From: CBDUXP01 sp965371225 [NCBI: uncultured bacterium]
GTDB taxonomy: Bacteria > Abyssobacteria > SURF-5 > CBDUXP01
DNA: 18,797 bases
Assembly (NCBI GenBank): GCA_965371225.1
Contig: CBDUXP010000072.1
Span: forward strand, 1 to 18,797
Reading direction: 5' to 3'
A model generated the notes under the pieces. That model did no database searches. It saw only the letters and a list, made by a program, of their open reading frames with translations, and was not told the DNA's origin. Positions 1,216 to 18,534 of this stretch are shown one piece after another. The position numbers and the translations under genes are program-made. Every line of letters starts with the position of its first letter. Position 1 is the stretch's first letter.

Positions 1216-1260
1216 CGCGCAAGATTCCGCATGCCGCAACGCCGGTGGAGGGCGAACAGG

Positions 1261-4200: not shown

Positions 4201-4869
4201 GCCGGCCGCCGCCGAGTCACGACGTACCTCGGCCGGTCGGCCACAGAAGAACGCTTCAAAGCCCTGCGGCGGCCGGCGCAGGTGCACATCGCCACGCATG
4301 GATTTTTCCTCGAAGACGTGGCGCGGCCCACCCCCCGCGACGTGCGGGGCATCGGCGGCGCCCGCCCCGTGCAGGGCGCGGTGGCGGAGACGGCCCAGGG
4401 CCTGGGCGGCTTGATCGAGCTGCGCAACCCGCTCCTGCGCTCCGGCCTCGCGCTCGCCGGCTTCAACGGCCTGGCGGAAGGTGTCGACCCCGGCCAGGGG
4501 CGGGACGATGGGATTCTCACGGCGCTGGAAGTCACCTGGATGGACCTGCAGGGCACCGAACTGGTGGTGCTCAGCGCGTGCGACACGGGGTTGGGCGAGG
4601 TGCAGCGGGGACAAGGCGTCGCCGGCCTGCGCCGGTCCTTCCGCATCGCGGGGGCGCGCAATGTGCTCATGAGTCTGTGGAGCGTGCCCGACGAGGAGAC
4701 CGCGTGGCTGATGGAGGAATTCCACCGGCGCCACCTGGGGGGCGAGCCGCCGCTCATGGCGCTGCACGGTGCGCGGCAGGTGGTGCGCAAGCGGCTGATC
4801 GAACGGGACGGCACCGACCACCCGTTTTTCTGGGCCGCCTTCGTGCTCCAGAGCGCGTCGTTGAGCTGA
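1261..4869 (+). CDS. Exported TPR-CHAT caspase-like protease
   Basis: This is a 1202-residue protein. The ATG at 1261 is preferred over the ATG at 1231 because GGAGG lies about 9 bases before it and it opens a clean signal peptide (MQRRLTWWVLIAGLVW, cleavage after ARPAFA). Residues about 35-610 hold some 13 tetratricopeptide repeats of the 42-residue kinesin-light-chain type (NNLAALY-GEYDEAEALYARAL-I-LGPDHP). A helical linker leads to a CHAT domain from about residue 755 to the end. The expected clan CD dyad is present: His1013 in HIATHGFFL and Cys1107 in VVLSACDTG, followed by the conserved GARNVLMSLWSVPDEET. The TPR array should bind a partner or regulator and the CHAT domain should be a cysteine protease, acting outside the cytoplasm if the signal is used. 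RGIGGAR occurs at 828-834 and again at 1029-1035, between His and Cys. The gene ends 15 bp from the convergent permease gene. The substrate is unknown. Confidence 0.93.
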   Translation: MQRRLTWWVLIAGLVWARPAFADRWDRAWDKATRTGVEAKYEGKLAPAEAQFQTALQLADTHGDQADPRVVQSLDNLAGLYLDLGRHAEAETLYTRALHLRKTHLGANHADVAVGLMNLGWLYDVQGSRAHAEQFYTEALAIREEALGEKHPDVAATLMALGDLYSAQDRFEESIDVYGRAGNIAAHTLGASHLRVADAVGRLAWVRTLQQRSEDADTLFEKAITLYHATTADPADVAVSLHLLAGLYQEREHFPQAQRLYAWALKIMEQNVGPTHESLGTSLNNLAALHYAQGEYDEAEALYARALDIAERSQGPDHLATATALHNLASLYHAQARYREAAQLYDRALRIREASLGRDNLQVAETADNLAALYTAEGRYARAEPLYTRALKIRETQLGPDHPDVATSLNNLGSLHHTMGELDRAHPLYARALAITEQRLGPDHLGVAAALNNIAGVAFLRKDYAVAEQRYRRSLAIREQALGSHHPAVATALNNLGALHEVQAQYAKAEALYRRALAIQEATLGRSHPALGITLNNLARLHHSRGDYAAAEPLFLRAVDIAAASQGERHPAYARARHNAGVMYGNWGRPEAALKQQVAGLGAVTSILEDLALWAAEPRLNGYLTTLEYRYDQFYSLLAQHPAAAARVANQALEAHLAYKGLAAETVARRNRLALLGDDPALAKQMGQLRAVTQRLATVTLAGPGEGSPEEHQATIKALEQEKADVEAKLARTSAAYAAAQFTDGVTVESVAAALPPSGLYLDLVLYDTYDFAKTGWTGEQRYLAFALRRDTDGRPVVQIEDLGPADTIDGIISRLREALQAEAETTRGIGGARQLRPTPTGPGASEFSLRLSEKVLQPFADALAHTRLLCVAPGGNFNLLPFEILSAPRSEELIADRMFVAYALGRDLHAARTARTPDEGDPNFYVFAAPDFAPHKRGRAGTAPADTSPVLKRGVVRGWPITFEPLPGTRAEAKGIAKAAGRRRVTTYLGRSATEERFKALRRPAQVHIATHGFFLEDVARPTPRDVRGIGGARPVQGAVAETAQGLGGLIELRNPLLRSGLALAGFNGLAEGVDPGQGRDDGILTALEVTWMDLQGTELVVLSACDTGLGEVQRGQGVAGLRRSFRIAGARNVLMSLWSVPDEETAWLMEEFHRRHLGGEPPLMALHGARQVVRKRLIERDGTDHPFFWAAFVLQSASLS
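1468..3030 (+). repeat. 126-bp-period TPR-coding tandem repeat
   Basis: Within the CHAT gene, a 42-codon unit recurs about 12-13 times without gaps. Each unit holds a NNLAxLY helix, an (A/S)EALYxRAL helix and a LGxxHP turn. Units are clearly degenerate at DNA level, so this is an old protein repeat and not a recent DNA amplification. The fourth and fifth units are the most degenerate; one has ADPA where the others have a G-x-x-H turn. Confidence 0.85.
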
Positions 4870-4884: not shown

Positions 4885-6108
4885 TTATTCGTACCGCAAC
4901 GCGTCGACGGGGTTCAGGCGCGCCGCGCGCAGGGCGGGATACAGGCCGGAGAGGATCCCCACGCCCCCGGCCATGAGCAGGGCGAGCAGTAAGGCCCAGG
5001 GCGTCACCGCGGTGCTCCACCCAGCGTAGAGGCTGACGATCTTCGCCCCCGCCACCCCCAGGACGACGCCCACCGCGCCGCCCACCAGCGTGAGCACCAC
5101 CGCCTCGGCCAGGAAGTGCGCCGCGATGTGCTGCTCGCTGGCGCCGACGGAGCGACGAATGCCGATCTCTTTCGTGCGCTCCGAAACGCTCGCCAGCATC
5201 ACGTTCATAATCCCGATCCCCCCCACGAGCAGGGAGATGCCGGCAATGCCACCGAGCACCACGTTGAAGACCCACTGCGTCCGTTGGGCCTGCAACAGCA
5301 ATTCCTGCGGCACGATGATCTGGAAATCTTCCGTGCGGCGGGCCTGCGCCAGAATGCGGCGGATGACGGCCGCGACGGCACGGACGTTGTGCCCCTGCCG
5401 CACCTTCACCACGATCTCGGTCAGATTGGCCGACCCGTGCGCCAGCCCGACCGCGCGCGGGTCTGCGCCCAGGGGCACGAAGGCGGTGCGGTTGAAGTTG
5501 CGCGCCGCGACGGCGGTGGCCTCGTCTTGCACGAAGCGACGCGCGCGCAAGATGCCCACCACGCGATAGGTGAATTCGCCCAGCCGGACGGTACCGCCCA
5601 CGTACCCCTCCCGGCCGACCATGGCCGCCGCCTCCGCACCCAGCACGCACACGAGCTGCCGCCGCGCCACGTCCGCCGCGCAGATGAACCGTCCCTCGCG
5701 CACCGGCAGGTTCATCACGCCCTGATAGCGACTGTCGACCGCGAGCACGTCGAGCGTGTCGGGCTCACTGGCGTCGCGCACCCGCGCGTTCGTTTCTCGC
5801 ACCGGCGCGACGGCCCCCGCCTCGGGCACCCGGCGTTCCAGGGCGCGCACATCGCTCCACGCCAGGGCCGGCCCGCGGCGCCGCACATTCGCTGCGGTCC
5901 CGTCGCGCCCCCCCCGGCGCACGACGATATTGTTCGTGCCGAGCTGGTGAATCTGCGCGAGGGTTTCGCGCTTGGCGCCTTCCGCGATCGCTAACATGGC
6001 CACCAGCGCGATGACCGCGAAGACGATGCCCAGCATGCTCAACAGGCTGCGCAGTTTCTGCTGCCAAATCGCCTGCACCGCGTGTTGCAGGAGCGGATGC
6101 CACTTCAT
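4885..6108 (-). CDS. MacB-type ABC transporter permease (FtsX family)
   Basis: This 407-residue inner-membrane permease forms the transmembrane part of a tripartite exporter. The first membrane helix is near residues 18-42 (LLSMLGIVFAVIALVAM). A large periplasmic MacB-type core domain spans about 45-270. Three C-terminal FtsX helices follow, including GGIGIMNVMLASVSERTKE, and the protein ends with the typical ARLNPVDALRYE. The start at 6108 is chosen because its ATG overlaps the TGA of the ATPase gene as ATGA; a GTG at 6114 is the alternative. In E. coli MacB the ATPase and permease are one chain, whereas here they are separate genes as in many LolD/YknYZ-like systems. The substrate cannot be told from sequence: a macrolide, peptide, siderophore or lipoprotein are all possible. 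Confidence 0.92.
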   Translation of the reverse strand: MKWHPLLQHAVQAIWQQKLRSLLSMLGIVFAVIALVAMLAIAEGAKRETLAQIHQLGTNNIVVRRGGRDGTAANVRRRGPALAWSDVRALERRVPEAGAVAPVRETNARVRDASEPDTLDVLAVDSRYQGVMNLPVREGRFICAADVARRQLVCVLGAEAAAMVGREGYVGGTVRLGEFTYRVVGILRARRFVQDEATAVAARNFNRTAFVPLGADPRAVGLAHGSANLTEIVVKVRQGHNVRAVAAVIRRILAQARRTEDFQIIVPQELLLQAQRTQWVFNVVLGGIAGISLLVGGIGIMNVMLASVSERTKEIGIRRSVGASEQHIAAHFLAEAVVLTLVGGAVGVVLGVAGAKIVSLYAGWSTAVTPWALLLALLMAGGVGILSGLYPALRAARLNPVDALRYE

Positions 6109-6797
6109 GCGCACGCCGCCTCGGCCGCCACCCGGCCATCCTGCAGTTGCACCACGCGCCCACAGCGCTCCGCGACTTGGGCGTCGTGGGTCACCATCAC
6201 GAGGGTCGTGCCGTGCTCGTGCACCGCGCTAAACGTATCCAGGATGCGCGCGCTCGTGGCCGAATCCAGATTGCCCGTGGGCTCATCGGCCAGAATGAGT
6301 TGCGGCTCGACCACCAGGGCGCGGGCGATGGCCACCCGCTGCATCTCGCCCCCCGACAGTTCCACGGGGCGATGATGGCGCCGGTGGCTGAGGCCCACGT
6401 GGTCCAACGCATGCGCGGCCCGCTCGGCCGCATCGGGAACCGGCTCCTCCCAGTACAGGAACGGGAGCGCGACGTTGTCCAGCACGTCGTACTGCGGAAT
6501 GAGATTGAAGTTCTGGAACACGAAGCCGATGTTCCGCGCGCGCAGGCGGGACAGGGCCGCGTCTGAGAGGCGGGCGACATCCCGGCCGGCGAAGACATAC
6601 GTGCCGCTGGTCGGCCGGTCCAGGCAGCCGAGGATATGCAGGAGCGACGACTTGCCGCACCCCGAGGGGCCCATGATGCCCACGCACTCCCCGCGCTCGA
6701 CTACCAGATCCACATCGCGGAGCGCTTCCACGCGCGGAGCCACGGCGCCGTATACCTTCCACAGGCCGTGCGCCGTGACGAGGGGACCGGGCGTCAT
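6105..6797 (-). CDS. ABC transporter ATP-binding protein (MacB/LolD class)
   Basis: This 230-residue ATPase energises the adjacent permease. All nucleotide-binding motifs are present: Walker A GPSGCGKSS (43-51), Q-loop in FVFQNFNLI (92-100), signature LSGGE (147-151), Walker B LILADEP (167-173) and switch His204 in VTHD. PTGNLDSAT after Walker B is typical of the MacB/LolD/FtsE group. The start at 6797 is fixed by the ATGA overlap with the upstream adaptor gene; the frame itself runs further upstream, but that part lies inside the adaptor. Its own stop overlaps the permease start in the same way, which implies translational coupling. Confidence 0.95.
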   Translation of the reverse strand: MTPGPLVTAHGLWKVYGAVAPRVEALRDVDLVVERGECVGIMGPSGCGKSSLLHILGCLDRPTSGTYVFAGRDVARLSDAALSRLRARNIGFVFQNFNLIPQYDVLDNVALPFLYWEEPVPDAAERAAHALDHVGLSHRRHHRPVELSGGEMQRVAIARALVVEPQLILADEPTGNLDSATSARILDTFSAVHEHGTTLVMVTHDAQVAERCGRVVQLQDGRVAAEAACA

Positions 6798-8278
6798 GAG
6801 GCGGCGGGAGCGGCCGGCAAGGCGCGCTCCCCGCGCACCCGATCCGGTGGCGGGCGGACCAAGGCCACGCGTTCCCCCGCCCGCAAGCCGCGGAGTATCT
6901 GCGCCCAATCTTCGCTCTGCGCGCCGAGGGCCACCTCGCGCAACTGGAACCGGCTGCCGCTGCCCACGTAACAGTACGCCCGCCCGTCTTGGATGAAGAC
7001 GGCATGCACCGGCACGGCCAACGCCTCCCGCAATTGTGCGCTGTCAATCTCGATACGCGCCGTCATCCCGGGGCGCAAGCGCGCATCTCCGTCGTGCAAC
7101 TCGAGCACGGTGCGGAACGCCTTGTCGCCCCCCGGCACGTGGTGCCGCGCTTCCGCCATCACCCCAATGGATCGCACCATACCCGCCAGGCGCAGCCCGG
7201 GATACGCGTCGACGATGACGGTCGCGGGCATGCCCACCGCCACGTTGTGCAGGTCCAGTTCACGAATATGTGTTTCCACCACCATGCGCGACACGTCCGG
7301 CACGTAGATGAGCGGCTGGTTCTGAAGCACCACGTCACCCACCCGGGGTTTCCGCCGTTCCCCCTGGCGGAAACTTTCCTGCAACACCACCATCCCCGAG
7401 AGGGGCGACCGGATGACCGTGCGGGCCAGCTCCGCCTCCACCTCCGCCAGTTCCGCTTCGGCGGCCGCGCGCGCTTCCCGGTTCTGGCCGAGTGCCGCCG
7501 CCGCTTTGGCGACCGCCAGTTCACCGCCGCGGCCCAGCTCGTCGATTTCGGCCTGCGCCCGGGCCACGCGCATCTTGGCCTGCTCGAGCAGCGTCGGCAG
7601 CACATACGTGCCGTAGCTCTGGAACTGGCGTTTGGCAATCTCCAACTCTTGCCGCGCCTCCTCGGCCGTGCCGCTGGCTTGGGCGATTTCCGTGGGGTTG
7701 CTGTAGCCTTGCTCCGCCAGCCCTTCCAGGTCCTTCACGTAGCGCGACTTCTCTTCGAACGCCTTGCGCGCCTTGCGCGCCTGACTTTCCAACCGCGCCA
7801 ACTCGAGCGGCCCTTCCCCCTTCTCGAGTTTCAGCAGGTCCAGTTCCGTCACGCGCGCGTTGAATTCGGCCGTCTTGACATCCCGCGCAGCCTGATTCCG
7901 TTCCAGCGCGAGGGTTTGCTCCGCGGTCGCCACCGCCGCCGCCCGTTCCTGGACCACCTGCCGCAGTTGGACGATGTGCTCCTCGAACGGCGTCGGGTCC
8001 AGCCGGATCAGCACATCGGTTCGGTCCACCGGCGTCCCGTCCGCCACGAGATAAATGATCTTGCCACGGTCGCCACGTACTTGGGAGGACACGACCGTCG
8101 CCCGCGCGGAATCCAGCTCGCCCACGGCGCGCACCACCACGCCGAAGTCGCGCACTGTCGCTTGCGTGGTGGGCACCGCCCACTCGGCTTCGAGGCCGCC
8201 TGATCCGCCGCTCACCGCGCTGACGGTCGCCACCAGCAACAGCCCCAGACCTAAGCCGGCCAAGCCTTTCCACTGCAT
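6794..8278 (-). CDS. Periplasmic adaptor (membrane fusion protein, HlyD/MacA family)
   Basis: This 494-residue adaptor bridges the inner-membrane ABC complex and the outer-membrane channel. An N-terminal membrane anchor or signal (GLAGLGLGLLLVATVSAV) is followed by the first half of a lipoyl domain (GKIIYLVADGTPVDRTDVLI). A long alpha-hairpin of about 200 residues comes next, rich in Glu, Ala and Arg. The second lipoyl half (TVIRSPLSGMVVLQ) and beta-barrel domains (LRPGMTARIEI, ALAVPVHAVFIQDGRAYCY) complete the fold. At 494 residues it is longer than E. coli MacA (about 370), mainly because of the hairpin. It starts 2 nt after the outer-membrane gene stops and overlaps the ATPase start by ATGA. 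Confidence 0.93.
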   Translation of the reverse strand: MQWKGLAGLGLGLLLVATVSAVSGGSGGLEAEWAVPTTQATVRDFGVVVRAVGELDSARATVVSSQVRGDRGKIIYLVADGTPVDRTDVLIRLDPTPFEEHIVQLRQVVQERAAAVATAEQTLALERNQAARDVKTAEFNARVTELDLLKLEKGEGPLELARLESQARKARKAFEEKSRYVKDLEGLAEQGYSNPTEIAQASGTAEEARQELEIAKRQFQSYGTYVLPTLLEQAKMRVARAQAEIDELGRGGELAVAKAAAALGQNREARAAAEAELAEVEAELARTVIRSPLSGMVVLQESFRQGERRKPRVGDVVLQNQPLIYVPDVSRMVVETHIRELDLHNVAVGMPATVIVDAYPGLRLAGMVRSIGVMAEARHHVPGGDKAFRTVLELHDGDARLRPGMTARIEIDSAQLREALAVPVHAVFIQDGRAYCYVGSGSRFQLREVALGAQSEDWAQILRGLRAGERVALVRPPPDRVRGERALPAAPAAS

Positions 8279-8280
8279 CG

Positions 8281-9822
8281 CTAGAACCGCACCGGACGTT
8301 CCACCAACGTCCCCAGGCTCGCCCGCAAGCGGTACGTGCCGACAATGTAGTCGAACACCACGCCGATCAGACTCAACTGCGCCCGCCGCAATTCCGCCTC
8401 CGCGTCGATCACGTCGAAGTTATCGGCCAGCCCGCGCTGGAACTTGACGCGCGCCAACGCCAGTTGACCGTCCGCCTGGTCGATCTGTTCCTGCTGAATG
8501 GCGATCCGCCGTTCCGACCGTTTCAGGCTACGCAAGTCGCGTTTCACTTCGCGCACCACCTCGTCGTGCCGCAGCCGCAGGTTGCGCCGGGAGGTACGCA
8601 CGTTCACCAGGCTCTGTTTGTGCGCCGCGCGTTCGGCTGTGCGCGCAAGGTCCGTGCTGGAAGACAGCGCCACGCCCCAGAAGTCTTGCGACAGGTTCGT
8701 GCTGTCGTTGAAATTGTCCCCCGTGCCCAGGCGGGAATAGGTGAAGTTGATATCCAAGTCGGGAAACGTGTTATGCCGGGCGACGCGGGATTGGCGTTCC
8801 AGGTCGCGCATGAGGTCGGCCGCATTGTCCAGCTCGACCCGCGACCGGAGCGCCACGCGCACCGCCTCGGCGTCGGCCATGCGCACCAGGTCGTAGGTCA
8901 GCGGCGCCTCCACCTGCAGGGCCTCGTCCAGCGGGAGCGCCAGGAGCACGCGCAGGGAGTCTATCGCGTCCTCGTGCGCCTGCCTGGCGTTCGTCAGGTT
9001 GTCCTCTGCCTGATTCAACTCCAGGCCCGCGCGATAGGTATCGATCGCGGTCGTCATGCCGATGCCTTCTTTGACCTTGGCCGCTTCATAGTGTCCGCGC
9101 AGCCGCTCGGCGGATTCCGCGTTCAGCCGCTCGGCTTCCCGCTGCCGGATGATGTTGTACACGCCGCTCACAGTGGCCAACACCGTGTCCACCCGCGTGA
9201 GATACTCCGCCCGCGCGGCGGACCGCTGGCTGAACTCTGCCCCCTGAACGCGCGACAGGTTGAACTCCCGGTTCAGACCGCGCAAGAGGGGCTGCGTCAG
9301 CGTCGTGTCCACGCCCGACCGGTAGAAATCGCCGATGCGCTGCACGTTCGGCTCGACGCTGACCACCGTCCCGAAGGTCGCGAACCGCTGCCGCATTTCG
9401 AGACCGGCGCCGTACCGCTCTTGCGTTTCGGTAGCGCCTTCGAAATCCCCCACGGCGCCCGCCTCGCCCCTCGGGATGAACTTGAGTTCGAACTCCGACT
9501 CCGCTTGCACCAGCGATAACTCCGCCGTTTCCATCCGGTCCCGGGCGTTGAGCAGTCCGCGATTGGCCATGAGCGCCCGATTGATGGCCTGCTCCAGGGT
9601 CAGAGCGCGCGCCACGGGCCCCGGCGTCGGTTCGATAGCCTCCGGCTGCGCCGCCGACTCCGGCTCAGCCGCCTCCGCACTTGGGGGCGCCTGGTCGTCT
9701 TGAGCCCGGACCGGTCCCGCCGCCGTGCAGAGCAGCCCCACTGCGGCACAGAGGAATGCCGTCCCCAGACTGGAACGCCATTGCACTCGGGATTGCGGTC
9801 CCCTGCCTCCCGCTCTGATCAC
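8281..9822 (-). CDS. TolC-family outer-membrane efflux protein
   Basis: This 513-residue outer-membrane factor forms the exit duct of the export system. A signal peptide (GTAFLCAAVGLLCTAAGPVRA) is followed by a Pro/Glu/Ala-rich stretch of about 30 residues. The first TolC helix then begins at ALTLEQAINRALMANRGLL, and the paired outer-membrane efflux repeats follow with long coiled coils (ERRIAIQQEQIDQADGQLAL, then VIDAEAELRRAQLSLIGVV). The GTG at 9822 is the chosen start because GGAGGGG sits 5 nt upstream (9828-9834 on the complementary strand). It is the first gene of the four-gene operon. The Pro-rich insert before the first helix is longer than in E. coli TolC. Confidence 0.92.
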   Translation of the reverse strand: MIRAGGRGPQSRVQWRSSLGTAFLCAAVGLLCTAAGPVRAQDDQAPPSAEAAEPESAAQPEAIEPTPGPVARALTLEQAINRALMANRGLLNARDRMETAELSLVQAESEFELKFIPRGEAGAVGDFEGATETQERYGAGLEMRQRFATFGTVVSVEPNVQRIGDFYRSGVDTTLTQPLLRGLNREFNLSRVQGAEFSQRSAARAEYLTRVDTVLATVSGVYNIIRQREAERLNAESAERLRGHYEAAKVKEGIGMTTAIDTYRAGLELNQAEDNLTNARQAHEDAIDSLRVLLALPLDEALQVEAPLTYDLVRMADAEAVRVALRSRVELDNAADLMRDLERQSRVARHNTFPDLDINFTYSRLGTGDNFNDSTNLSQDFWGVALSSSTDLARTAERAAHKQSLVNVRTSRRNLRLRHDEVVREVKRDLRSLKRSERRIAIQQEQIDQADGQLALARVKFQRGLADNFDVIDAEAELRRAQLSLIGVVFDYIVGTYRLRASLGTLVERPVRF

Positions 9823-9862
9823 TATCGCCCCTCCGTGCGCACCCCCATGCGCGAGTATCCAA

Positions 9863-9868
9863 AGTATA
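9863..9868 (-). promoter_or_regulatory. Possible -10 box for the export operon
   Basis: TATACT (minus strand) lies about 40 bases before the GTG start of the outer-membrane gene, in the most A/T-rich part of the 133-bp gap. No good -35 is found at 17 bp spacing (GCGTAA), so this rests mainly on the -10 and its position. Confidence 0.3.
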
Positions 9869-9955
9869 CGAGAAGACGGTACGGATTACGCACCCGAATC
9901 GGTATTGGCAGAATTGGGATCCGCCCATCGCCAGGCCCGGAGGAGTCCGGAGGAG

Positions 9956-10636
9956 TTAGGGAGCCCCCTCTGCCAATCGCCGCTTCTGGGCTTCGTAGAG
10001 TCCGGAGTTCCGTAACGTCTGTTGGCCGCTCCGCCACATCAGCAAGACGGGATGCGCGGAAAACGCGTTGGTCTGAAACCACTCCTCCCCCTTTGTGACA
10101 AAGAGCATCTTGAGAATCCGCCGCTGCGCTCGCGGGGCATCGCGAGACTCAGCGCCATCGTCTGCCGGGGTGTCGCCTGTGAGAACAATTTCATAGCCGA
10201 TGATGGCAAAATCCGGAGTGGTGGCCTGTGCGGTGAGCAAGACATCGCGCCCAGCTAACCCGGCCCGCCAAGCCGCAATCCAATCCTCGCGGGAGCGCGG
10301 CCGTAGTGCCGGGTCCTGTGCGGCCTCTGGGCTTGCGCGCGCCAAGAGTGCCCGGCGATCTTCCTCGGTCCAACACGCCAACCACGCATCAAAGTCCCCC
10401 GCATGCATGGCCGCGAAGACAGCGGTGGCGGCCTGGACCGGTGTATCACGTTGCACCGACCCGGCCGAACGCGACGGGGCAACGCGAACGGGCGGGGTGA
10501 ACACGTCCTCCTGAAAGGTCCAAACCGTCTCTATAGTGATCTCCTTGGACGCAGACATGCTGGGGAGGGCAGGGGCAGACACGAGTTGGCCAAGGGGAAG
10601 GCCGACAACCACAAACAAGCATCGTGGATTCACCAT
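9956..10636 (-). CDS. Small exported protein with NTF2/SnoaL-like domain
   Basis: This 226-residue protein starts at the ATG at 10636; the longer frame to 10750 would overlap the upstream gene. The N-terminus has a hydrophobic signal (CLFVVVGLPLGQLVSAPALP). Residues about 75-200 resemble an NTF2/SnoaL-like cone fold: a helix (AATAVFAAMHAGDFDAWLAC), a helix-rich part ending DWIAAWRAGLAG, then beta strands (FAIIGYEIVLTG and RILKMLFVTKGEEWFQTNAF). No catalytic residues can be assigned, and a small-ligand or scaffold role is only a guess. It lies 56 bp downstream of the paralogue pair on the same strand and is probably co-transcribed with them. Confidence 0.7.
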   Translation of the reverse strand: MVNPRCLFVVVGLPLGQLVSAPALPSMSASKEITIETVWTFQEDVFTPPVRVAPSRSAGSVQRDTPVQAATAVFAAMHAGDFDAWLACWTEEDRRALLARASPEAAQDPALRPRSREDWIAAWRAGLAGRDVLLTAQATTPDFAIIGYEIVLTGDTPADDGAESRDAPRAQRRILKMLFVTKGEEWFQTNAFSAHPVLLMWRSGQQTLRNSGLYEAQKRRLAEGAP

Positions 10637-10692
10637 GGGGATGCTCTTGCAACCCCGGGAACCTCGCACAAAAGCAAGCTCATCGCGGGCTG

Positions 10693-12003
10693 CTACTGCG
10701 GCAGTGGTTCCTGAATTTCGCCACACGTGAAGCTCACCGTGGCGCTCCACTGAAATCCCGTGGAGTCTTCCCCTTCGGCGTGATCGTGCTCGTAGACCAC
10801 ATCCACGAACGGATTGCCGCTGAAGCTTTCCGCCGTGACCACGGTGGTGCCGGAACTCGCTGTGCGCTGCGAGAAGATGGTCGACCCTTCATAAATGAGG
10901 CTGAAGGTGTCCAGCCCAAAGTCGGGTTCCGTGGAATCGGTGCCCCCGGAATCGAAGCTGAAGTTGACCTGGACTTGGATCACCTCCTGCCCCGAGGGAA
11001 TGTTCAGGGTCTCGATCCGCGTCACCAGGAGCGGAAACGTGCCGAACGTACTGGCACTCACCGCCTGGCCCAGGAAATTGACCGAACCCGGCTCCACTGC
11101 ACAGAACGGGGAACTCGGGGCGGGACCATCCCCGCCGCCGCCCCCACCGCCCGCGGCAGCCACCCCGCCGGCGACCGCACCCCCGACGATAGCCGCACCC
11201 GCGGCAATCGTCCCAACGCCAACCCCGGCGGCGGCGCCCGCGGTCGCTCCCGCAGCGGCCGTCGTGCCCGCAGCGGCCGTACTCGTACCGGCACTCGTTC
11301 CTGCGCTGGCTCCACTGGCTCCACCGCCGCTACCGGTGCCCGATGCCGCGACGCCACTCAGGATCGTGACGGGAACGAGGCCACAGAAGATCACATCGGC
11401 CGGCCCGAGGCCCGGCCCACCGGCGGCTTCATCCTGCGGGGTCCCGTACAGTTCGCCGGTGATGCCGTACCGTTCCTCCGGCGGGGCGCTCGCCAGCTCG
11501 ACGGTATCCTCGAAGCCCGGCACCCCTTCCAAGGTGGCGGCCAGGTCGGTGTTTACCGTAAGGGGTTCATCTTCGGGAACGGCTTGCCACAAGGGGGTCT
11601 CGGGCTCGTCCCGCGCCCCGGCGGCGAAGGCTTCCGTCCGGAACACGCAGCGGGCGCCGGTCACGGTGAGGAACAGGTATTCGAACTCGTTCGTCCCGCT
11701 CTCCGGCGCCGGTAGCACGCCACGATATTGGTCACCGCCGACCGGGACCATGTCCACGTAGCTGTAGTCCACGGCCCCCTTCTGCCGGAAGTAGCAGCGG
11801 ACCGTTTCCACGCCGCTCTCGTCGCTGACCTGAGCGAGAACTTCCACGCGGTGCCCCGGCACGAAGTATTGAATCGGCCGGTGCCGAATCGTCGGGGTCG
11901 TCAACTCTGCGGCCACGCCGGTCGTCGCGGCCACCACCACACACAACAGCAGCGCGCACAGCCGGCGCTCCACCGGCACTCGCCGCGTCTTTCCATACTG
12001 CAT
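10693..12003 (-). CDS. Secreted modular protein, paralogue A (unknown family)
   Basis: This 436-residue protein has its ATG at 12003, with a G-rich ribosome-binding site (GGGGGG) a few bases upstream. A signal peptide (CALLLCVVVAATTGVAA) leads into a beta domain of Ig/fibronectin character: TIRHRPIQYFVPGHRVEVLA, then VSDESGVETVRCYFR and SYVDMVPVGGDQYRGVLPAP. A conserved middle segment (GVPGFEDTVELA, PEERYGITGELYG) ends at VIFCG. A Gly/Ala-rich, weakly hydrophobic hinge of about 80 residues follows, then a C-terminal beta domain with a final Cys in SFTCGE. The neighbour at 12144-13334 shares the first 200 or so residues closely. I do not recognise the family. A surface or periplasmic binding protein is inferred, possibly anchored through the hinge. 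Confidence 0.8.
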   Translation of the reverse strand: MQYGKTRRVPVERRLCALLLCVVVAATTGVAAELTTPTIRHRPIQYFVPGHRVEVLAQVSDESGVETVRCYFRQKGAVDYSYVDMVPVGGDQYRGVLPAPESGTNEFEYLFLTVTGARCVFRTEAFAAGARDEPETPLWQAVPEDEPLTVNTDLAATLEGVPGFEDTVELASAPPEERYGITGELYGTPQDEAAGGPGLGPADVIFCGLVPVTILSGVAASGTGSGGGASGASAGTSAGTSTAAAGTTAAAGATAGAAAGVGVGTIAAGAAIVGGAVAGGVAAAGGGGGGGDGPAPSSPFCAVEPGSVNFLGQAVSASTFGTFPLLVTRIETLNIPSGQEVIQVQVNFSFDSGGTDSTEPDFGLDTFSLIYEGSTIFSQRTASSGTTVVTAESFSGNPFVDVVYEHDHAEGEDSTGFQWSATVSFTCGEIQEPLPQ

Positions 12004-12143
12004 CGTCACGATCCCCCCTACGCCCAACTATGAGTCTCGTGCTGCTCCTGACGGAGCCGAGGCCCATTCACTCCCACCTCCGGAAACGACTCCAGCCACC
12101 CGCGCGCCACACTGTGAAAGGCGCCACGACTGGCCCAGGCTTA

Positions 12144-13334
12144 TTAGCCTAAACTCCCGCACGACACCTCGATGTCCACAGTCCAGGAGTGCCCGTTCTC
12201 TTCGTCGCACCCCTCGTTGCAGGACAACACCTCAACGATCACTTCTGTGGCGCTGCCGGAGCTGCTTCCTGAGCCTGTGCCGGTCTGACCTTGGCTCACG
12301 TTCCCCGTGTCGGCGATCAGCACACCGTCGTAAAACACCTGGAAGATATTGTCGCCGAAACATTCGCATACCGGGCCCGCGTCGCCCAGGATGTTCGCGA
12401 AGACCACAATCGGTAGCTCGGGAGACGGGCCGACGGGAAGCGGGATCACAGTAGTCCAGGGATCCCCCGCAGGCGTTCCCAGCGATTCACCACCACTCGC
12501 GCTGAAGAGAATGGGTGACGTGCTGCTGGTGCATTCCACAGGCGGATCCAACGACCCGCCACCGCCGCTGCTGCCCCCGCCGTCATTCGTTGCGGCAACC
12601 ACTCCGCCGGCCGCCGCCGCCGCCACGCCGACTCCCGCGGCCAACCCACCGCCGGCACCGCCGGTCGACGCGGCGGCCACGATCGTCGCTGCGGGGATGA
12701 CGCCACAGAAGATCACACCGGCCGGGCCGGGCAAGAGCGCGCCGCCCGCGCCTTGGTCGTCATCGTCCGGCTCGCCATACACGCCACCGGTAATCCCGTA
12801 GCGCTCTTCGGGCACCGCCGCGGCCAATTCGATCGCGTCGTCAAAGCCCGGGATGCCGGCCAGCGTGGTTTCCAAATCCGTCCCGACGGCGACCGCCTCA
12901 TTTTCGGCCACCTGCTGCCACTGCGGGGCGCCTTTGGCCTGCTCGCGCTCGTCCCCGGCACGGACCACGAACGGGTCGGTCCGGAACAGGCACCCCGCGC
13001 CGGTCACCAGGAGAAACATGTACTCGATCTCGCTGTTCTCATCCGACGGCGCGGGCAGCACGCCGCGGTACTGGTCGCCCCCGACGGGCGCCATATCCAC
13101 GTAGCTGTATTCGACCGCCCCCTCCTGGCGGAAGTAACACCGCACCGTATCCACGCCGCTCTCGTCACTCACGGCGGCGAGCACTTCCACCCGGTGCCCG
13201 GGCACGAAGTATTGGATTGGCCGGTGCCGAATGGTCGGCAGTTCCTGAGCGACCACCGCGGCGCCCCCCAGCAATCCGGCAAGAACGAAAACGATCCGGC
13301 GCCGCACCGGCGCCCCCCAGAACTGCAACAACAT
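12144..13334 (-). CDS. Secreted modular protein, paralogue B (unknown family)
   Basis: This 396-residue protein is taken from the ATG at 13334, which follows a GGGGGG block like that of paralogue A; an ATG at 13349 is the alternative. The signal (RIVFVLAGLLGGAAVVAQ) is followed directly by LPTIRHRPIQYFVPGHRVEV, and the N-terminal domain matches paralogue A at nearly every position for about 58 residues. The middle segment is conserved too (GIPGFDDAIELAAA, PEERYGITGGVYG, VIFCG). The hinge is shorter and the C-terminal domain is only distantly similar, but it keeps the layout F-x-V-x-Y-DG, W-x-V-x-I-x-V-x-CG. It carries extra Cys pairs (CECFG, CNEGC) absent from A, suggesting disulfides outside the cytoplasm. 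The gene ends in tandem TAA stops. Confidence 0.8.
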   Translation of the reverse strand: MLLQFWGAPVRRRIVFVLAGLLGGAAVVAQELPTIRHRPIQYFVPGHRVEVLAAVSDESGVDTVRCYFRQEGAVEYSYVDMAPVGGDQYRGVLPAPSDENSEIEYMFLLVTGAGCLFRTDPFVVRAGDEREQAKGAPQWQQVAENEAVAVGTDLETTLAGIPGFDDAIELAAAVPEERYGITGGVYGEPDDDDQGAGGALLPGPAGVIFCGVIPAATIVAAASTGGAGGGLAAGVGVAAAAAGGVVAATNDGGGSSGGGGSLDPPVECTSSTSPILFSASGGESLGTPAGDPWTTVIPLPVGPSPELPIVVFANILGDAGPVCECFGDNIFQVFYDGVLIADTGNVSQGQTGTGSGSSSGSATEVIVEVLSCNEGCDEENGHSWTVDIEVSCGSLG

Positions 13335-13706
13335 GGCGAGTCCCCCCATCCACTGGCCGGCGCCCAACGCGCCAGCCGTTACAAAAATGACATCAGGCCA
13401 GCATCTTAACTGCTGTCGCTCCCCGCCACCAGCCTCCCGCCGGCTGAATCTCGGTGGACAATTCCCGATAAAATATACCTGCACCCAAGCCCAGCCCGCC
13501 TTGGGGGATAGGGCTTGGGCGGGGAGCAAATGGGGAGGGGCCGCCGGGCCGAACGGGGGGGCGAGATTGGTGTACACTGCGAGTATTCGCGCCAGGGAGA
13601 GAGTGCGCCGGCAAAGTTCGCGCCGGACGTACGACCAAAAGCATCTGAAACAGCAGCTTTGGCGACTGCCCTTCACTACCCGAGCGTGGTGACTGCTTCG
13701 CACCGC
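13335..13706. other. Divergent spacer between paralogue B and the coiled-coil gene
   Basis: This 372-bp region separates two divergently oriented genes. It holds an A/T-richer patch at about 13461-13484 (ATTCCCGATAAAATATACC) where a promoter could lie, and a G-rich block on the plus strand at 13503-13540. No -35/-10 pair with good spacing was found on either strand. The plus frame of the downstream gene stays open back to 13515, but its codons here lack the third-position G/C bias seen after 13707, so I treat it as non-coding. Confidence 0.5.
13503..13540 (+). other. Putative G-quadruplex motif
   Basis: Six G-runs of three or more (GGGGG, GGG, GGG, GGGG, GGGG, GGGG) are separated by loops of 3, 3, 1, 7 and 1 bases, which satisfies the usual G3+N1-7 rule. 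It is on the coding strand, 167 bases before the likely start of the coiled-coil gene, so it could form in the leader RNA or the displaced DNA strand. Confidence 0.5.
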
Positions 13707-16700
13707 ATGCCCATCATCCCCCAGCCCGATCCTCGCGACGCGAACCCTGACGCCGCCCCGGGCGTCGACAGTGATCTCGCGCGCGCCGTCGAACGCGCCA
13801 AGGCGGCACGCCGGCAGACTCACGCGGAAGCCGCGCGCGCCGCCGCACACGCCAATGCGGCGCGGGTCGCCGCGGAGAAAGCGCGGCGCGCGGCCGAGGC
13901 CAAGGCCGACGACTTGCGCTCGGTGATCGCGGCGGTCCGCGATGCGGGCTGGGCGGGGCTAGGTGGCATGGAGGGCGATTGGGAACGCGTCTTGACCGAC
14001 GCCGCGCAGATGCACGCGCTTCTGACGGCGGACGCCGCGCGTAAGGAAGCCGGGGCCGCAACCGCCCGCGCCGCGGCGGAGCGCGCACGGCTCACGGCGG
14101 AAGGCAAGACGCGCCTGTATTTCACGGCCGAAATCGCCCGGGCAGAGGCCATCGTGGATGCCACGCAAAGCGCGCGGCACCGCGCGACCGACGCAAACGG
14201 AGATTCCACCCACCCCCACCAGGCGATCGACGCGGCGGCCGCGGCGGAAATCGACGAAGCCCGCGCCGCGGAGATGCAGGCCCGAGCCGACGCCCTGACC
14301 GCCCGCATGGAGGTGGAAGAAGCGCGCGCCGCGGCCGAACTCCTACTGGCCCAGGCGCGCACGGAACGCGTCGCGGCACAGACCGAGGCGGAGCAGGCGC
14401 TCTCCCAGGCCGCCGACCAGAGCACGCGCGCGGAGATGGCCGAACGGGTGCTTGCGCGCGCCGAACTCCGGCTGACCAATGTGCAGGGGATGGCCGACGC
14501 GGCCTTTGCGGAGCTGGAGCAGTTGCGTGAGGAAGCCGATACGGCCGCGACGCGGGCGGACGCGGCGGATGCCGCACTCGCAGAGGCCGAGGCCCGAACG
14601 CGCGTGGCGGAAACCGAAGCCGTCACCGCACGCGAAATTGCCGAATCCGCGCGCGCCGAAATGTCTAACGATATCGCGGCAGCAGTCGCCAAGCGGCACG
14701 TGGCGCACACGGAACCCGACCACGTGCACCTGCGGATCGCCACGGAAGCGACCCGCGCCGATGCAGCGGAAGCGGCCCGCGCGGCAGCCGCCGCCGAAGT
14801 CGCCGCGTTACGCACCGAGGTGGATCGGCTCACGACGGACGCGGTCACGTTGGAGAACGCGCCGGGCGAAGCCGCCAGTGGAGAGGCAGCCAAGCGCGCC
14901 GCGGATGCCGCATCGGAGATTGCCACCTACCGCATGGAAGCGGCGGAAGCGCGCGCCGCCGCGGAGGCCGCCCAGGCGCTGACACAACGGGAAGCCGCCG
15001 CGGCCGCGGAGGCGCGCGCGGCGCTGGCCGATGCAAACGCAGCGCGTGAGGAAACCGAAACTCGTGCCACCGAGGCGCGCCTGGAGGCCACCCACACGCA
15101 GGCAGCCCTCGACCAGGCGCGCGCCGAAGCCACGGCGATCGCCGAGCAGGGGCAGGCCTCATCCGCCGCAGTCGCGGGCGCGGAAGCCCGCGCGGAAAAC
15201 GCACGGGCAGATGCGAATGCCGCGCGCCGCGAAACGGATGTGCACATCGCCCAGGCGCGGGCGGAGACGGAGGAAGCCAATGCGGTCGCCGAGCGGTTCC
15301 GCCTGCGGGCGGCGGAGGCGACCGAGCGTGCCGATGGCTTGAACTCGGAGTTGGCCGATGCGGAAGCGCGCGCCACGCAGGCGCGCGAGGTTGCCGAGGA
15401 TGCCCAGACCGAGGTGGAAGACTCACAGACCTGGGCCGAAGGCCAACTACAGCGCGCGAAGGCCGCTGAGGTCGCGTGCGCCGACGCTCAAAAGGAAGTG
15501 GTGCGCGCGCAGGCCGATGCCGCAGATGCCCGCGCTCGGGCGGAAGCGGCCGAGGCCGAGCTGCAAGCTGCACGCGCCCGCGCGGAGGTGGCCCAACGCG
15601 CAAGCACATCTGCCGAGCAAGCGGCCAAGTCCCGCGTTGCCCAACTCCAAGCTGAGCTAGATGCCGCCGGCGTCGAAGCGCGCGCCAATACCGCCGGCGC
15701 CGCGTCGGAGGCGGCGGCCCGGGCGAAAGCGGACCAGCTTGCGGCCGACGCGCGCGTTGAAGCGGCGCGAGCCCGCGCTCAGCGGGATGAGGCCATCACC
15801 CGTACCGCTGCCGCCGTGGCGCACGCCGAGGAAGCCGAACTCGACCGCGCACGTGCGCAGGCCGACCTGGCCGAGGGGCAGGCGCGAGAAGCGGCAGCCC
15901 GTGAAGAAGCCGCGACCCAGGTCGCCAGTGCGCAGACGACTGCCGCCGAAGCCCAGGAACAAGCGGAAGCGGCCCGCGCCCACGCGAACGCCGCGGTGAT
16001 TCGTGCCGAAGCAGCAGACCGGGCACGCTCCGAAGCAGAATCCCAAGTGGCCGACGCCCAAGCGGTCGCCGCCGCCGCCCGGTCCCATGTGGCGGCCTCC
16101 CGGGTGGCCGAGGCCGCCCTCGCCGAAGCCCAGCGCGCCCGCATGGAAGCCGAGCACGTGCGCGATGACGCCCTGGCGGCCCAGACGGCAGCCCAGGAAG
16201 CGTGCGCGGAAGCGGAACGGCAAGTGAGCCAAGCGTGGGCGGTGGCGGACCAGGTTCGCAAGGAAGCCGACGCGGCCCGCACCGAAGTGGCGACCGTGCG
16301 CGCGAAAGCTCAACGCCGCATTGACGAGACGCGCCACAAAGCCGCAGCGATTCATGCAAAGGCCGTCGCGGCCACGCGGCAGGCCGACACCGCGCAAGCC
16401 AGGGCGGACGCTGCCCGCGCCGCGGCGGAGAGCGCGCGCGCGGAACTCAAGACCGAGGGTGCAGCCATGCGCGCCGAGGCCGCGGATCTGCAGGCCCAGG
16501 CCCAGCGGGAAATGCAGGCGGCGACCGCCCAACAGGAGGCCGCCCATCACGCGGCCGAAGAGGCGCACGGCCTATCCACCCGGGCGCGCGCGGAGGCCGC
16601 GGAGGCCCGGACCCGGGCGCTGGAAGCGGAAAGCGCGGCGGCGGAGGCGCATGCCGCCCAAACGGAGGCGGAAGCGGCGGCGGAGAGCGCGCGCGCCCAA

Positions 16701-17552
16701 CTGGCCCAGGCCAAAACCGACCTCGCCCGGGCGGAACGCGTGCGGGCGCAACTGGAAGCCGACTTGGCGGAGGCCACACGCAACCAAGCGCTCGCCGCAG
16801 GACCACCCCTGCCGGCACCCGCACCGAAAAGGGCGGCGCCCACGGTCAAGCCGGCTATGGTGCCAATGGTCAGACCGGCGAGTCCCCCCGCGGACACCGC
16901 GGCCCCACAGAAGACGGCCGCGACGCGGGAGACCTCGGAGCCCGAGCGGCGGCGCACCGTGGTCTGGTATCCCGAGCGCGGGGACGCCCAGCCGCAACCG
17001 CCCGACGAGTTTCTCGAAGCCGCGCTGCATAGCGCGAGCGGACAGGTCATCGTGGCCGATACCGGAACGGAAGCGGGCGCCGCCATCGATTCCACCCGGT
17101 TCCTTGAGACGATGCTGGCGCGGGGCATCGTCAACGCCGCGGTGGCCCCCATCTGGGATCCGCTCGCGGTCACCGCGTGCGAACAAGCGGGGGTGGGCGC
17201 CCGGGTGCCGCTGCGCATTGGCGCCCGGCGCGGGCCGGACGCGGGCGAGCGGATCGAGGTGACCGCCACCGTCTTAGGGCTCACGCGATCGCTGACGGAT
17301 GCAGCCGGGGGCGTAGAGTATTCCTTCGGCGCCTGCGCGGGCATCAAGGTGCACTTGGACGGCGGGTTTTCCATCGAACCGGCAAGTGGCATCGACGTCG
17401 TGCTCTGTCAGCGGCGGCAGAAGCATTTCACCCGGCGCCTCTTCACCCAGGTCGGCATCGATCCGGAACCCAAGCGCCTCTTGATCCTGAAATCCACCCG
17501 GCACCTGCAGGCGGACTTCCGCGAGGATGCCGTGGAATCGGAACAGGTCTAG
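13707..17552 (+). CDS. Giant Ala-rich coiled-coil protein fused to an MlrC C-terminal domain
   Basis: This is a 1281-residue protein if started at the ATG at 13707. A GTG at 13686 is possible, and no start here has a clear ribosome-binding site. Residues about 20-1030 are almost pure Ala/Glu/Arg/Gln coiled coil built from ARAEAEAAR-like units, broken near residues 75-95 by a short non-coiled piece (VRDAGWAGLGGMEGDWERVL). A Pro-rich linker spans about 1032-1080. The C-terminal 190 residues match the MlrC C-terminal domain pattern: VIVADTGT, DSTRFLETMLARGI, APIWDPLAVTACEQAGVGA, IDVVLCQRR, FTQVGIDPEPKRLLILKSTR. In normal MlrC/M81 proteins this domain follows a metallopeptidase half, which is absent here. 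There is no signal peptide or membrane helix, so a cytoplasmic filament or scaffold is inferred. Confidence 0.85.
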   Translation: MPIIPQPDPRDANPDAAPGVDSDLARAVERAKAARRQTHAEAARAAAHANAARVAAEKARRAAEAKADDLRSVIAAVRDAGWAGLGGMEGDWERVLTDAAQMHALLTADAARKEAGAATARAAAERARLTAEGKTRLYFTAEIARAEAIVDATQSARHRATDANGDSTHPHQAIDAAAAAEIDEARAAEMQARADALTARMEVEEARAAAELLLAQARTERVAAQTEAEQALSQAADQSTRAEMAERVLARAELRLTNVQGMADAAFAELEQLREEADTAATRADAADAALAEAEARTRVAETEAVTAREIAESARAEMSNDIAAAVAKRHVAHTEPDHVHLRIATEATRADAAEAARAAAAAEVAALRTEVDRLTTDAVTLENAPGEAASGEAAKRAADAASEIATYRMEAAEARAAAEAAQALTQREAAAAAEARAALADANAAREETETRATEARLEATHTQAALDQARAEATAIAEQGQASSAAVAGAEARAENARADANAARRETDVHIAQARAETEEANAVAERFRLRAAEATERADGLNSELADAEARATQAREVAEDAQTEVEDSQTWAEGQLQRAKAAEVACADAQKEVVRAQADAADARARAEAAEAELQAARARAEVAQRASTSAEQAAKSRVAQLQAELDAAGVEARANTAGAASEAAARAKADQLAADARVEAARARAQRDEAITRTAAAVAHAEEAELDRARAQADLAEGQAREAAAREEAATQVASAQTTAAEAQEQAEAARAHANAAVIRAEAADRARSEAESQVADAQAVAAAARSHVAASRVAEAALAEAQRARMEAEHVRDDALAAQTAAQEACAEAERQVSQAWAVADQVRKEADAARTEVATVRAKAQRRIDETRHKAAAIHAKAVAATRQADTAQARADAARAAAESARAELKTEGAAMRAEAADLQAQAQREMQAATAQQEAAHHAAEEAHGLSTRARAEAAEARTRALEAESAAAEAHAAQTEAEAAAESARAQLAQAKTDLARAERVRAQLEADLAEATRNQALAAGPPLPAPAPKRAAPTVKPAMVPMVRPASPPADTAAPQKTAATRETSEPERRRTVVWYPERGDAQPQPPDEFLEAALHSASGQVIVADTGTEAGAAIDSTRFLETMLARGIVNAAVAPIWDPLAVTACEQAGVGARVPLRIGARRGPDAGERIEVTATVLGLTRSLTDAAGGVEYSFGACAGIKVHLDGGFSIEPASGIDVVLCQRRQKHFTRRLFTQVGIDPEPKRLLILKSTRHLQADFREDAVESEQV

Positions 17553-17627: not shown

Positions 17628-17656
17628 GTGACAGCGTTCCCCATTGCGCATACAAT
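17628..17656 (+). promoter_or_regulatory. Sigma70-like promoter of the LLM oxidoreductase gene
   Basis: GTGACA (17628-17633) and TACAAT (17651-17656) are separated by exactly 17 bp, each one mismatch from consensus. The start codon at 17689 follows about 26 bases after the expected transcription start, with a strong GAGAGGGGGG ribosome-binding site at 17676-17685. Confidence 0.7.
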
Positions 17657-17688: not shown

Positions 17689-18534
17689 ATGCACATCGGA
17701 ATCTTTCCCGCCACGACGGACTTCGCCGTGCGGCCGGACGAGCTGGCCCGCGCGTGCGAGGAACGGGGCTTCGAATCCTTCTGGGTGGGCGAGCACACGC
17801 ACATCCCCGCCAGCCGGAAGACGCCCGCTCCCGGGGGCGGCGAACTGCAACGGGAGTATTTCCACCTGCACGATCAGTTCGTCGCCATGACCGCGGCCGC
17901 CGCCGTGACGGACACCATCAAGATCGGCAGTGGGGTCAGTCTCGTGATCGAGCACGACCCGATCGTCCTGGCCAAGCAAGTCGCGTCCCTGGACATCATT
18001 TCAGAGGGGCGCGTGTTGTTTGGTATCGGCGGTGGCTGGAACGCGGAAGAGATGGAGAACCACGGCACCCCCTTCGACCGGCGCTGGAAAGTCCTCCGCG
18101 AGCGCATCGAAGCCATGAAGTGCATCTGGACGGAAGAGGAACCGGCGTACCACGGCGAGTTCGTGAATTTCGATCCCATCTGGTGCTGGCCGAAACCGCT
18201 GCAAGACCCGCACCCGCCGATCATCATGGGCTCGAACACCCCCCGCGGCCGGCAGCGGGTGGTGAACTACTGCGACGGGTGGATGCCCCAGGCGCTGCCG
18301 ATGGAGCGGATGCAGGCCGCCATCGACGACTTGCACCAGCGTGCCGAAGCCGCCGACCGCGACCCCGCCTCCATTGAGTTGTCCGTCTTCTGGCCGCGCG
18401 CGGACGAGGCGACGCTCCGCGGCTACGAAGAGTTGGGCGCCGCACGCGCGATCCTCGGCCTCCCCGCCGGCGACCGGGATAGCACCCTCGCGCGCCTGGA
18501 CCGATACGCGGCGTTGGTCCCCGTGCTGGCCTGA
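17689..18534 (+). CDS. LLM class F420-dependent oxidoreductase
   Basis: This 281-residue luciferase-like monooxygenase-fold TIM barrel has the features of the F420-dependent Rv2161c-like group. It starts MHIGIFPATTDFAVRPDELA and continues ERGFESFWVGEHTHIP, IKIGSGVSLVIEHDPIVLAK, then ISEGRVLFGIGGGWNAEEM and IEAMKCIWTE, all classic family blocks. Such enzymes usually transfer hydride between coenzyme F420 and a small organic substrate in the cytoplasm; FMN-using relatives exist and the substrate cannot be predicted. The ATG at 17689 is chosen over one at 17644 because it follows a strong ribosome-binding site and the earlier codon would lie upstream of the transcription start. It has its own promoter and looks like an independent gene. 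Confidence 0.93.
   Translation: MHIGIFPATTDFAVRPDELARACEERGFESFWVGEHTHIPASRKTPAPGGGELQREYFHLHDQFVAMTAAAAVTDTIKIGSGVSLVIEHDPIVLAKQVASLDIISEGRVLFGIGGGWNAEEMENHGTPFDRRWKVLRERIEAMKCIWTEEEPAYHGEFVNFDPIWCWPKPLQDPHPPIIMGSNTPRGRQRVVNYCDGWMPQALPMERMQAAIDDLHQRAEAADRDPASIELSVFWPRADEATLRGYEELGAARAILGLPAGDRDSTLARLDRYAALVPVLA

What the first reader, a model, noticed from the sequence alone, without database searches (positions are those of the whole stretch)
13707..17552. MlrC C-terminal domain fused to a ~1000-residue coiled coil, without its peptidase half
The last 190 residues read clearly as the MlrC C-terminal domain (IWDPLAVTAC, GVGA, VVLCQRR, LFTQVGIDP, KRLLILKSTR), yet the metal-binding peptidase half is replaced by a huge Ala-rich coiled coil. 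The DST of the usual glycine-rich loop is kept while most of its glycines are lost. This suggests the domain was reused as a binding or capping module on a filament-forming rod, an architecture I have not seen described.
Basis: partly seen in the sequence, partly recalled or inferred. Interest (0 to 1): 0.8.

Follow-up and report, generated by a model that had tools for sequence, protein, structure and literature searches.

The report
Enzyme half fused to long rod
A bacterial gene joins the back half of a peptide-cutting enzyme, minus its catalytic half, to a thousand-residue helical rod, so it most likely makes a structural or scaffold protein rather than an enzyme; only one copy has been seen so far.

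Summary
Window 13707-17552 (+) is one open frame of 1281 residues. Pfam finds MlrC_C (PF07171) at 1122-1273, E 5.7e-31, and nothing else at E<=10; the M81 peptidase half (PF07364) is absent. Residues about 20-1032 are a 35% Ala rod with heptad periodicity, followed by a Pro-rich linker of about 65 residues. They keep the peptidase half and the DNAGGG loop. The window domain lost D332 and N333 of that loop, the S392 equivalent and about 33 terminal residues. Still, family-conserved columns are retained more often than variable ones (22/29 against 24/76, deleted columns not counted, p=5e-5). No second fusion was found in 11 genome searches with the head (1,975 genome draws, some repeated). Best reading: a catalytically dead, exapted MlrC_C head on a long coiled-coil scaffold. 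Filament formation, capping and folding of the head are untested. A relic domain or an assembly artefact cannot be excluded: single copy, no host genome held.

The parts
13707..17552 (+). Whole fusion gene, 1281 aa, ATG start (in-frame TTG at 13515 is an alternative)
   Evidence: Pfam MlrC_C only
13767..16802 (+). Alanine-rich helical rod, residues about 21-1032 (A 35%, E 12%, R 11%, heptad periodicity)
   Evidence: model of residues 560-1110
16803..17000 (+). Pro/Ala-rich linker, residues about 1033-1098, unstructured in the model
   Evidence: Pro positions; model
17001..17549 (+). MlrC C-terminal-domain homology, residues about 1099-1281 (Pfam match 1122-1273 = 17070-17525)
17058..17096 (+). 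Degenerate glycine loop, residues 1118-1130 (DTGTEAGAAIDST for DTxDNAGGGAPxDST)
   Evidence: alignments; D332/N333 of MlrC are T1121/E1122 by the alignment
17526..17552 (+). Truncated end: the sister L148 continues about 33 residues further (site of S485 and R492 in MlrC)
   Evidence: alignment; Pfam profile matched only to 153/178
17689..18534 (+). Downstream luciferase-like monooxygenase gene, 136 bases after the fusion, with a promoter-like site at 17628-17656; context only
   Evidence: Pfam Bac_luciferase 5.6e-56 (query from 17692, without the first Met)

Best explanation
The gene makes a cytoplasmic structural or scaffold protein. About 1000 residues form a long alpha-helical coiled coil (inferred; roughly 150 nm if fully extended at 0.15 nm per residue). 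A flexible Pro-rich linker then carries a small head derived from the C-terminal domain of an MlrC-type M81 metallopeptidase related to those of two genomes in a Myxococcota-associated order (homology shown). The head cannot be an M81 peptidase on its own: the zinc half is absent, the loop carrying D332 is rewritten and the tail is cut (shown). After separation from the peptidase half, the domain most likely kept its fold and was exapted as a protein-binding or self-association module at the end of the rod (inferred).
For: MlrC_C is the only Pfam match. Both sister proteins have PF07364 plus PF07171 and join the window domain in a 99/96 clade, with a shared insertion after GIKVHL that most other relatives lack. 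Over residues 1100-1273, 22 of 29 family-conserved columns equal the sister L148, against 24 of 76 variable columns, Fisher p=4.8e-5 (columns deleted in the window, i.e. two loop positions and the tail, are not in this count). The core is therefore under selection, or was until recently. In MlrC, H133A (N half) and D332A (C half) give no usable enzyme, which the authors ascribe to folding or stability (passages of PMC9982164); the window protein has lost both sites, as expected if they served the joint enzyme (inference). Rod.
Against: No ortholog shows the fusion conserved. The head has a very long branch (1.7 against 0.27 and 0.15 in its sisters), which also fits relaxed selection. Conserved positions outside loop and tail are lost too (P1113, G1173, K1174, P1182, F1267). 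If D332 is needed for folding, as the MlrC paper suspects, its loss could mean that the head does not fold. The head's single-sequence model is worthless (pLDDT 31.7), so folding without the peptidase half is not shown. No partner, localisation or filament evidence exists; no signal-peptide or membrane predictor was run. Rod codon choice follows neighbouring genes (0.236), but one reverse frame scores higher (0.351), so that test does not discriminate.
Confidence: 0.5

Rival explanations
1. Relic: the rod gene picked up a broken MlrC gene downstream; the domain is a passenger at the C-terminus that is decaying and has no function.
For: Tail and loop lost, further conserved positions changed; long branch; no second fusion in the searches with the head. 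Stand-alone MlrC_C frames do occur (G1122 and G1129).
Against: Conserved columns retained preferentially; no stop or frameshift in the domain, although neutral simulations at 50% identity stay stop-free in 12% of runs (24% at 65%, 37% at 75%), so that part is weak.
Confidence: 0.2
2. Ligand-binding pseudoenzyme: the head still binds a peptide or amino-acid ligand with what remains of the MlrC cleft and reports it to the rod or anchors the rod to it.
For: D341 of MlrC, which contacts the docked substrate, is kept as D1128; K, S and H of the KSxxH motif, invariant in the 31-sequence alignment, are kept.
Against: In MlrC the cleft is built from both domains (PMC9982164); here the N half and the S392, S485 and R492 equivalents are missing.
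Confidence: 0.15
3. Artefact: a metagenome assembly chimera or sequencing error joined two genes.
For: Single contig, no host genome held, not found in genome or viral contigs by peptide patterns, no other fusion.
Against: The frame continues through a Pro-rich linker into the domain; third-position GC is similar on both sides (0.78 rod, 0.83 head; first-position GC differs, 0.83 against 0.71, as the Ala content would make it); no repeat of 26 bases or more lies in the linker region.
Confidence: 0.1
4. Split enzyme: the head completes an M81 peptidase half encoded elsewhere and so tethers the enzyme to the rod.
For: MlrC works as two domains around one cleft.
Against: The Asp and Asn of the loop (100% and 96% conserved in 47 relatives) and the tail are gone, and D332A alone yields no usable MlrC.
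Confidence: 0.05

Closest known systems
MlrC / M81 metallopeptidases (PF07364 + PF07171), e.g. Sphingomonas MlrC, PDB 7YLQ; nearest by sequence L148 (G1134) and L138 (G1091)
   Same: C-terminal domain homologous: 50% and 45% identity to L148 and L138, weaker to 7YLQ (E 1.3e-13); insertion shared with L148 and L138
   Different: No peptidase half, no zinc ligands, loop D and N replaced, tail missing, N-terminal rod instead
Bacterial coiled-coil-rich cytoskeletal proteins (Ccrp of Helicobacter, seen only as search listing and start of abstract; crescentin, Scy and FilP recalled)
   Same: Long alpha-helical coiled coil, possibly a scaffold
   Different: No sequence relation shown; none known to me (recall) carries an MlrC_C head; filament formation untested
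Stand-alone MlrC_C frame in G1122/G1129 (L150, L151)
   Same: MlrC_C without the peptidase half in its frame
   Different: Loop DNCGGGAPGD intact, tail present, no rod; could be a broken gene

Membership tests
MlrC_C domain (PF07171) | Profile match above gathering score | tested here: met
   108.6 bits against 27.2, residues 1122-1273, profile 9-153 of 178
M81 metallopeptidase (MlrC) | PF07364 peptidase half | tested here: not met
   No match at E<=10 in the 1281 aa; sisters score 275 and 281 bits
M81 metallopeptidase (MlrC) | Zinc ligands E39, D167, H169, H191 (the paper also prints H196) | tested here: not met
   They lie in the N half (PMC9982164, passages), which is absent
M81 metallopeptidase (MlrC) | D332-N333 loop of the C half | tested here: not met
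   T1121-E1122 in the window; D 100% and N 96% conserved in 47 relatives
M81 metallopeptidase (MlrC) | Complete C-terminal tail (S485, R492) | tested here: not met
   Protein ends 15 residues after H1266, the position of Q468
Coiled-coil cytoskeletal proteins | Long heptad helix | tested here: met
   Lag-7 z=6.1; helices of 145, 188 and 115 residues in a single-sequence model of residues 560-1110, pLDDT 72; spectral power at period 3.5 only weakly raised
Coiled-coil cytoskeletal proteins | Filament formation or scaffold role in cells | not testable with these tools
   Needs the purified or tagged protein

The most novel reading that the evidence does not exclude
A new kind of bacterial scaffold or filament protein in which half of a two-domain metallopeptidase was detached, lost the features tied to its catalytic partner, and became the head of a coiled-coil rod about 1000 residues long.
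Probability: 0.3. Interest if true: 0.65.

Novelty: new variant of a known kind. Interest (0 to 1): 0.42.

Why it matters
If real and conserved, it shows that the MlrC C-terminal domain can live without its catalytic half. That would separate what the domain does by itself (folding, binding) from catalysis in M81 enzymes. It also adds an enzyme-derived head to the repertoire of bacterial coiled-coil proteins. The test is simple: express the head and the rod.

Tried and rejected
Same fusion elsewhere: not found. Peptide-pattern scans of genome contigs and viral contigs with the head gave no relative; these scans need an exact short peptide and see only close relatives, so their silence is weak. 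An alignment query in viral contigs gave none either. tblastn against plasmids gave 364 of 72,556 records, all under 60% identity; in the 40 rows listed the features under the match, where annotated, were M81 peptidases. Phages: none. Twelve genome-search runs counted 1,985 genomes, some drawn more than once. (10 genomes) used only a neighbouring gene and found nothing; the other 11 runs (1,975 draws) used the head, joined with other window pieces, so some tallies there are matches to the neighbouring gene. In one search at most 8 first-look candidates per genome were scored, and searches did not list their weakest matches, so the frames of those were not looked at.

Listed matches in frames long enough to hide a fusion (10 places of 762-1673 aa, and one of 1082 aa) were fetched: all 11 have the peptidase motif HG[AS] 162-201 residues before the match, i.e. 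ordinary MlrC in overlong stop-to-stop frames. I did not fetch five further places of 716-742 aa (G250 once, G405 twice, G198 twice), nor one of 715 aa (G1075). Longer frames (up to 3779 aa) are matches to the neighbouring-gene part of the query.

Of 64 frames found in the loci, 56 had at least 250 residues before the match. These are 48 distinct ones, of which 47 carry HG[AS] at the right distance and the other has HSG there. The other eight have less upstream: seven begin at an end of the stretch held and one is a short frame. Of 21 rows from later loci (some the same place twice), 18 have HG[AS]; the three without it are the stand-alone frame in G1122 and G1129.

Structure of the head: single-sequence AlphaFold failed (pLDDT 31.7). 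No fold search was run.

Codon-usage test of the rod was not discriminating. Host identity: unknown. The closest copies of the neighbouring export cluster lie in the phylum group of G495 and the closest MlrC in that of G1134, so the host could not be placed.

Operon with the downstream oxidoreductase: considered, not supported; that gene has a promoter-like site of its own.

Literature: searches for MlrC_C, for MlrC with coiled-coil and fusion, for MlrC with domain architecture and for MlrC with Myxococcota listed no paper that, by title and start of abstract, describes such a fusion. I opened only PMC9982164, as passages. Most subscription papers are not held.

Full report
What is there. The reading frame 13707-17552 on the + strand codes for 1281 residues without a stop. 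The last part is homologous to the MlrC C-terminal domain: Pfam PF07171, 108.6 bits, residues 1122-1273, profile positions 9-153 of 178. The head given alone matches the NCBIfam MlrC model at 324-473 of 511 and PDB 7YLQ at 317-473. At E up to 10 no other Pfam family matches the whole protein, so the M81 peptidase half (PF07364) is absent. PHROGs (E up to 0.01) and PADLOC (E up to 0.001) give nothing for the protein.

The rod. Residues about 21-1032 are 35% Ala, 12% Glu and 11% Arg with 2% Gly and 1% Pro, followed by a Pro-rich linker to about 1098. In four of the five other frames of the same DNA, G+P is 25-32%; the fifth is Ala-rich and G/P-poor but has stops and 0.8% Glu. Ala shows a lag-7 autocorrelation of 0.197 over residues 101-1030, z=6.1 against 1000 shuffles, with further peaks at 14, 21 and 28. 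Spectral power at period 3.5 was only weakly above shuffles (2.64 against 0.99, sd 0.95). A single-sequence AlphaFold model of residues 560-1110 has mean pLDDT 72, three long helices of 145, 188 and 115 residues with low-confidence breaks, an unstructured linker, and a short helix where MlrC homology begins. The openness of the frame is not evidence in itself. Residues 1-1061 have no match among solved structures at 1e-5; the DNA holds only short tandem arrays of 2-3.5 copies.

Where the head comes from. In the class of a locus labelled Minwuiaceae (Alphaproteobacteria, recalled), 136 of 385 genomes matched the head, the best seven rows at 43-46% identity. A seven-genome order there carries 18-33 matches per genome. 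Better matches came from the order of G1091, which also holds the genome of a locus labelled Myxococcota (L029 in G015): G1134 at 50% and G1091 at 45-49% identity, among 7 of 79 genomes with a match. Both are full-length, PF07364 plus PF07171. A maximum-likelihood tree of 58 domains puts the window with these two at 99/96, with an end branch of 1.7 against 0.27 and 0.15. The tree tool warns that long rows are placed unsurely, but the three also share an insertion after GIKVHL that most other relatives lack.

What was lost and kept. Against 47 relatives the loop DNAGGGAPxDST has become TEAG--AAIDST. By the alignment, T1121 stands at D332 of MlrC, E1122 at N333, D1128 at D341 (kept), A1179 at S392, K1262 at K464 (kept) and H1266 at Q468; S485 and R492 fall in the missing tail (about 33 residues shorter than L148). 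In the MlrC paper (PMC9982164; abstract and passages seen) the zinc ligands are in the N domain, the cleft is made by both domains, and D332A and H133A were non-expressing, which the authors ascribe to folding or stability; K464A had no significant effect. H133 is, by my count in the alignment, the His of the HGA motif of the peptidase half. That H133 and D332 touch each other is my inference and was not tested. Over residues 1100-1273, 22 of 29 conserved columns (85% or more) equal the sister L148, 37 of 58 intermediate and 24 of 76 variable ones (below 50%); Fisher p=4.8e-5, conserved against variable. Columns deleted in the window were not counted. Counting every column of 85% or more, linker and tail included, 25 of 38 are kept. 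This argues against free decay over most of the branch. Absence of stops is weaker evidence (12-37% of neutral simulations, depending on divergence).

Is the fusion found elsewhere? Not in what could be searched: see Tried and rejected for counts, gaps and repeats. Relatives with enough upstream sequence kept the peptidase half (47 of 48 with HG[AS], one with HSG); the exception outside that set is a stand-alone MlrC_C frame in two genomes, without a rod. Metagenome contigs could not be scanned, and no genome is held for the window. So the architecture rests on one contig. An assembly error is unlikely but not excluded: third-position GC is similar on both sides of the junction and no repeat of 26 bases or more sits in the linker.

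How it may work. Shown: homology, loss of the catalytic half, rewriting of the loop, loss of the tail. Predicted: a helical rod. Inferred: the protein is cytoplasmic (no signal or membrane segment seen in the sequence by eye; no predictor was run), it oligomerises through the rod, and the head serves as a binding or association module on a flexible linker. Probability about 0.5 for this reading; a relic head 0.2, a ligand-binding pseudoenzyme 0.15, an artefact 0.1, a split enzyme 0.05.

Surroundings. Upstream on the opposite strand are two secreted-looking paralogs (judged by eye) and a TolC-MacA-ABC-MacB export cluster; farther up are a TPR-CHAT protein and a DUF4384 protein; downstream is a luciferase-like monooxygenase. 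The secreted gene plus TolC-MacA-ABC-MacB order recurs in G495 and G1151, and in part in G1154, with no rod gene in the stretches held (11.3, 19.0 and 6.3 kb). Nothing in the neighbourhood explains the fusion.

Verdict. A well-supported and, in the material searched, unique architecture: a known domain in a new setting, therefore a new variant of a known kind. It is interesting but single-copy, and its function is inferred.

Noticed in passing
window 4885-13850 (-): A secreted-looking gene next to TolC-MacA-ABC-MacB; the same order recurs in G495 (L156) and G1151 (L158) and partly in G1154 (L159) at about 30-60% identity. No Pfam family for the secreted gene.
   Followed up: partly
window 11599-11895 and 12942-13238: A 297-base direct repeat (78% identical) between the two secreted paralogs: a tandem gene duplication.
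   Followed up: no
L143 (G988:C31) and L141 (G976:C108): The same secreted domain matches repeatedly within giant open frames (3779 and 1371 aa); my guess is a surface-exposed repeat domain.
   Followed up: no
G370, G076, G404, G198, G405, G293, G406: A seven-genome order (class of a Minwuiaceae-labelled locus) with 18-33 matches to the MlrC_C head per genome, some in neighbouring copies: a large M81 expansion.
   Followed up: no
L150 1414-2109 (-) and L151 83-778 (+): An identical stand-alone MlrC_C frame of 232 aa in two genomes (G1122, G1129), with no peptidase motif in its frame; loop intact.
   Followed up: partly
window 1231-4869 (+): A protein with many TPR repeats and a C-terminal CHAT protease-like domain, after a DUF4384 protein.
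   Followed up: no
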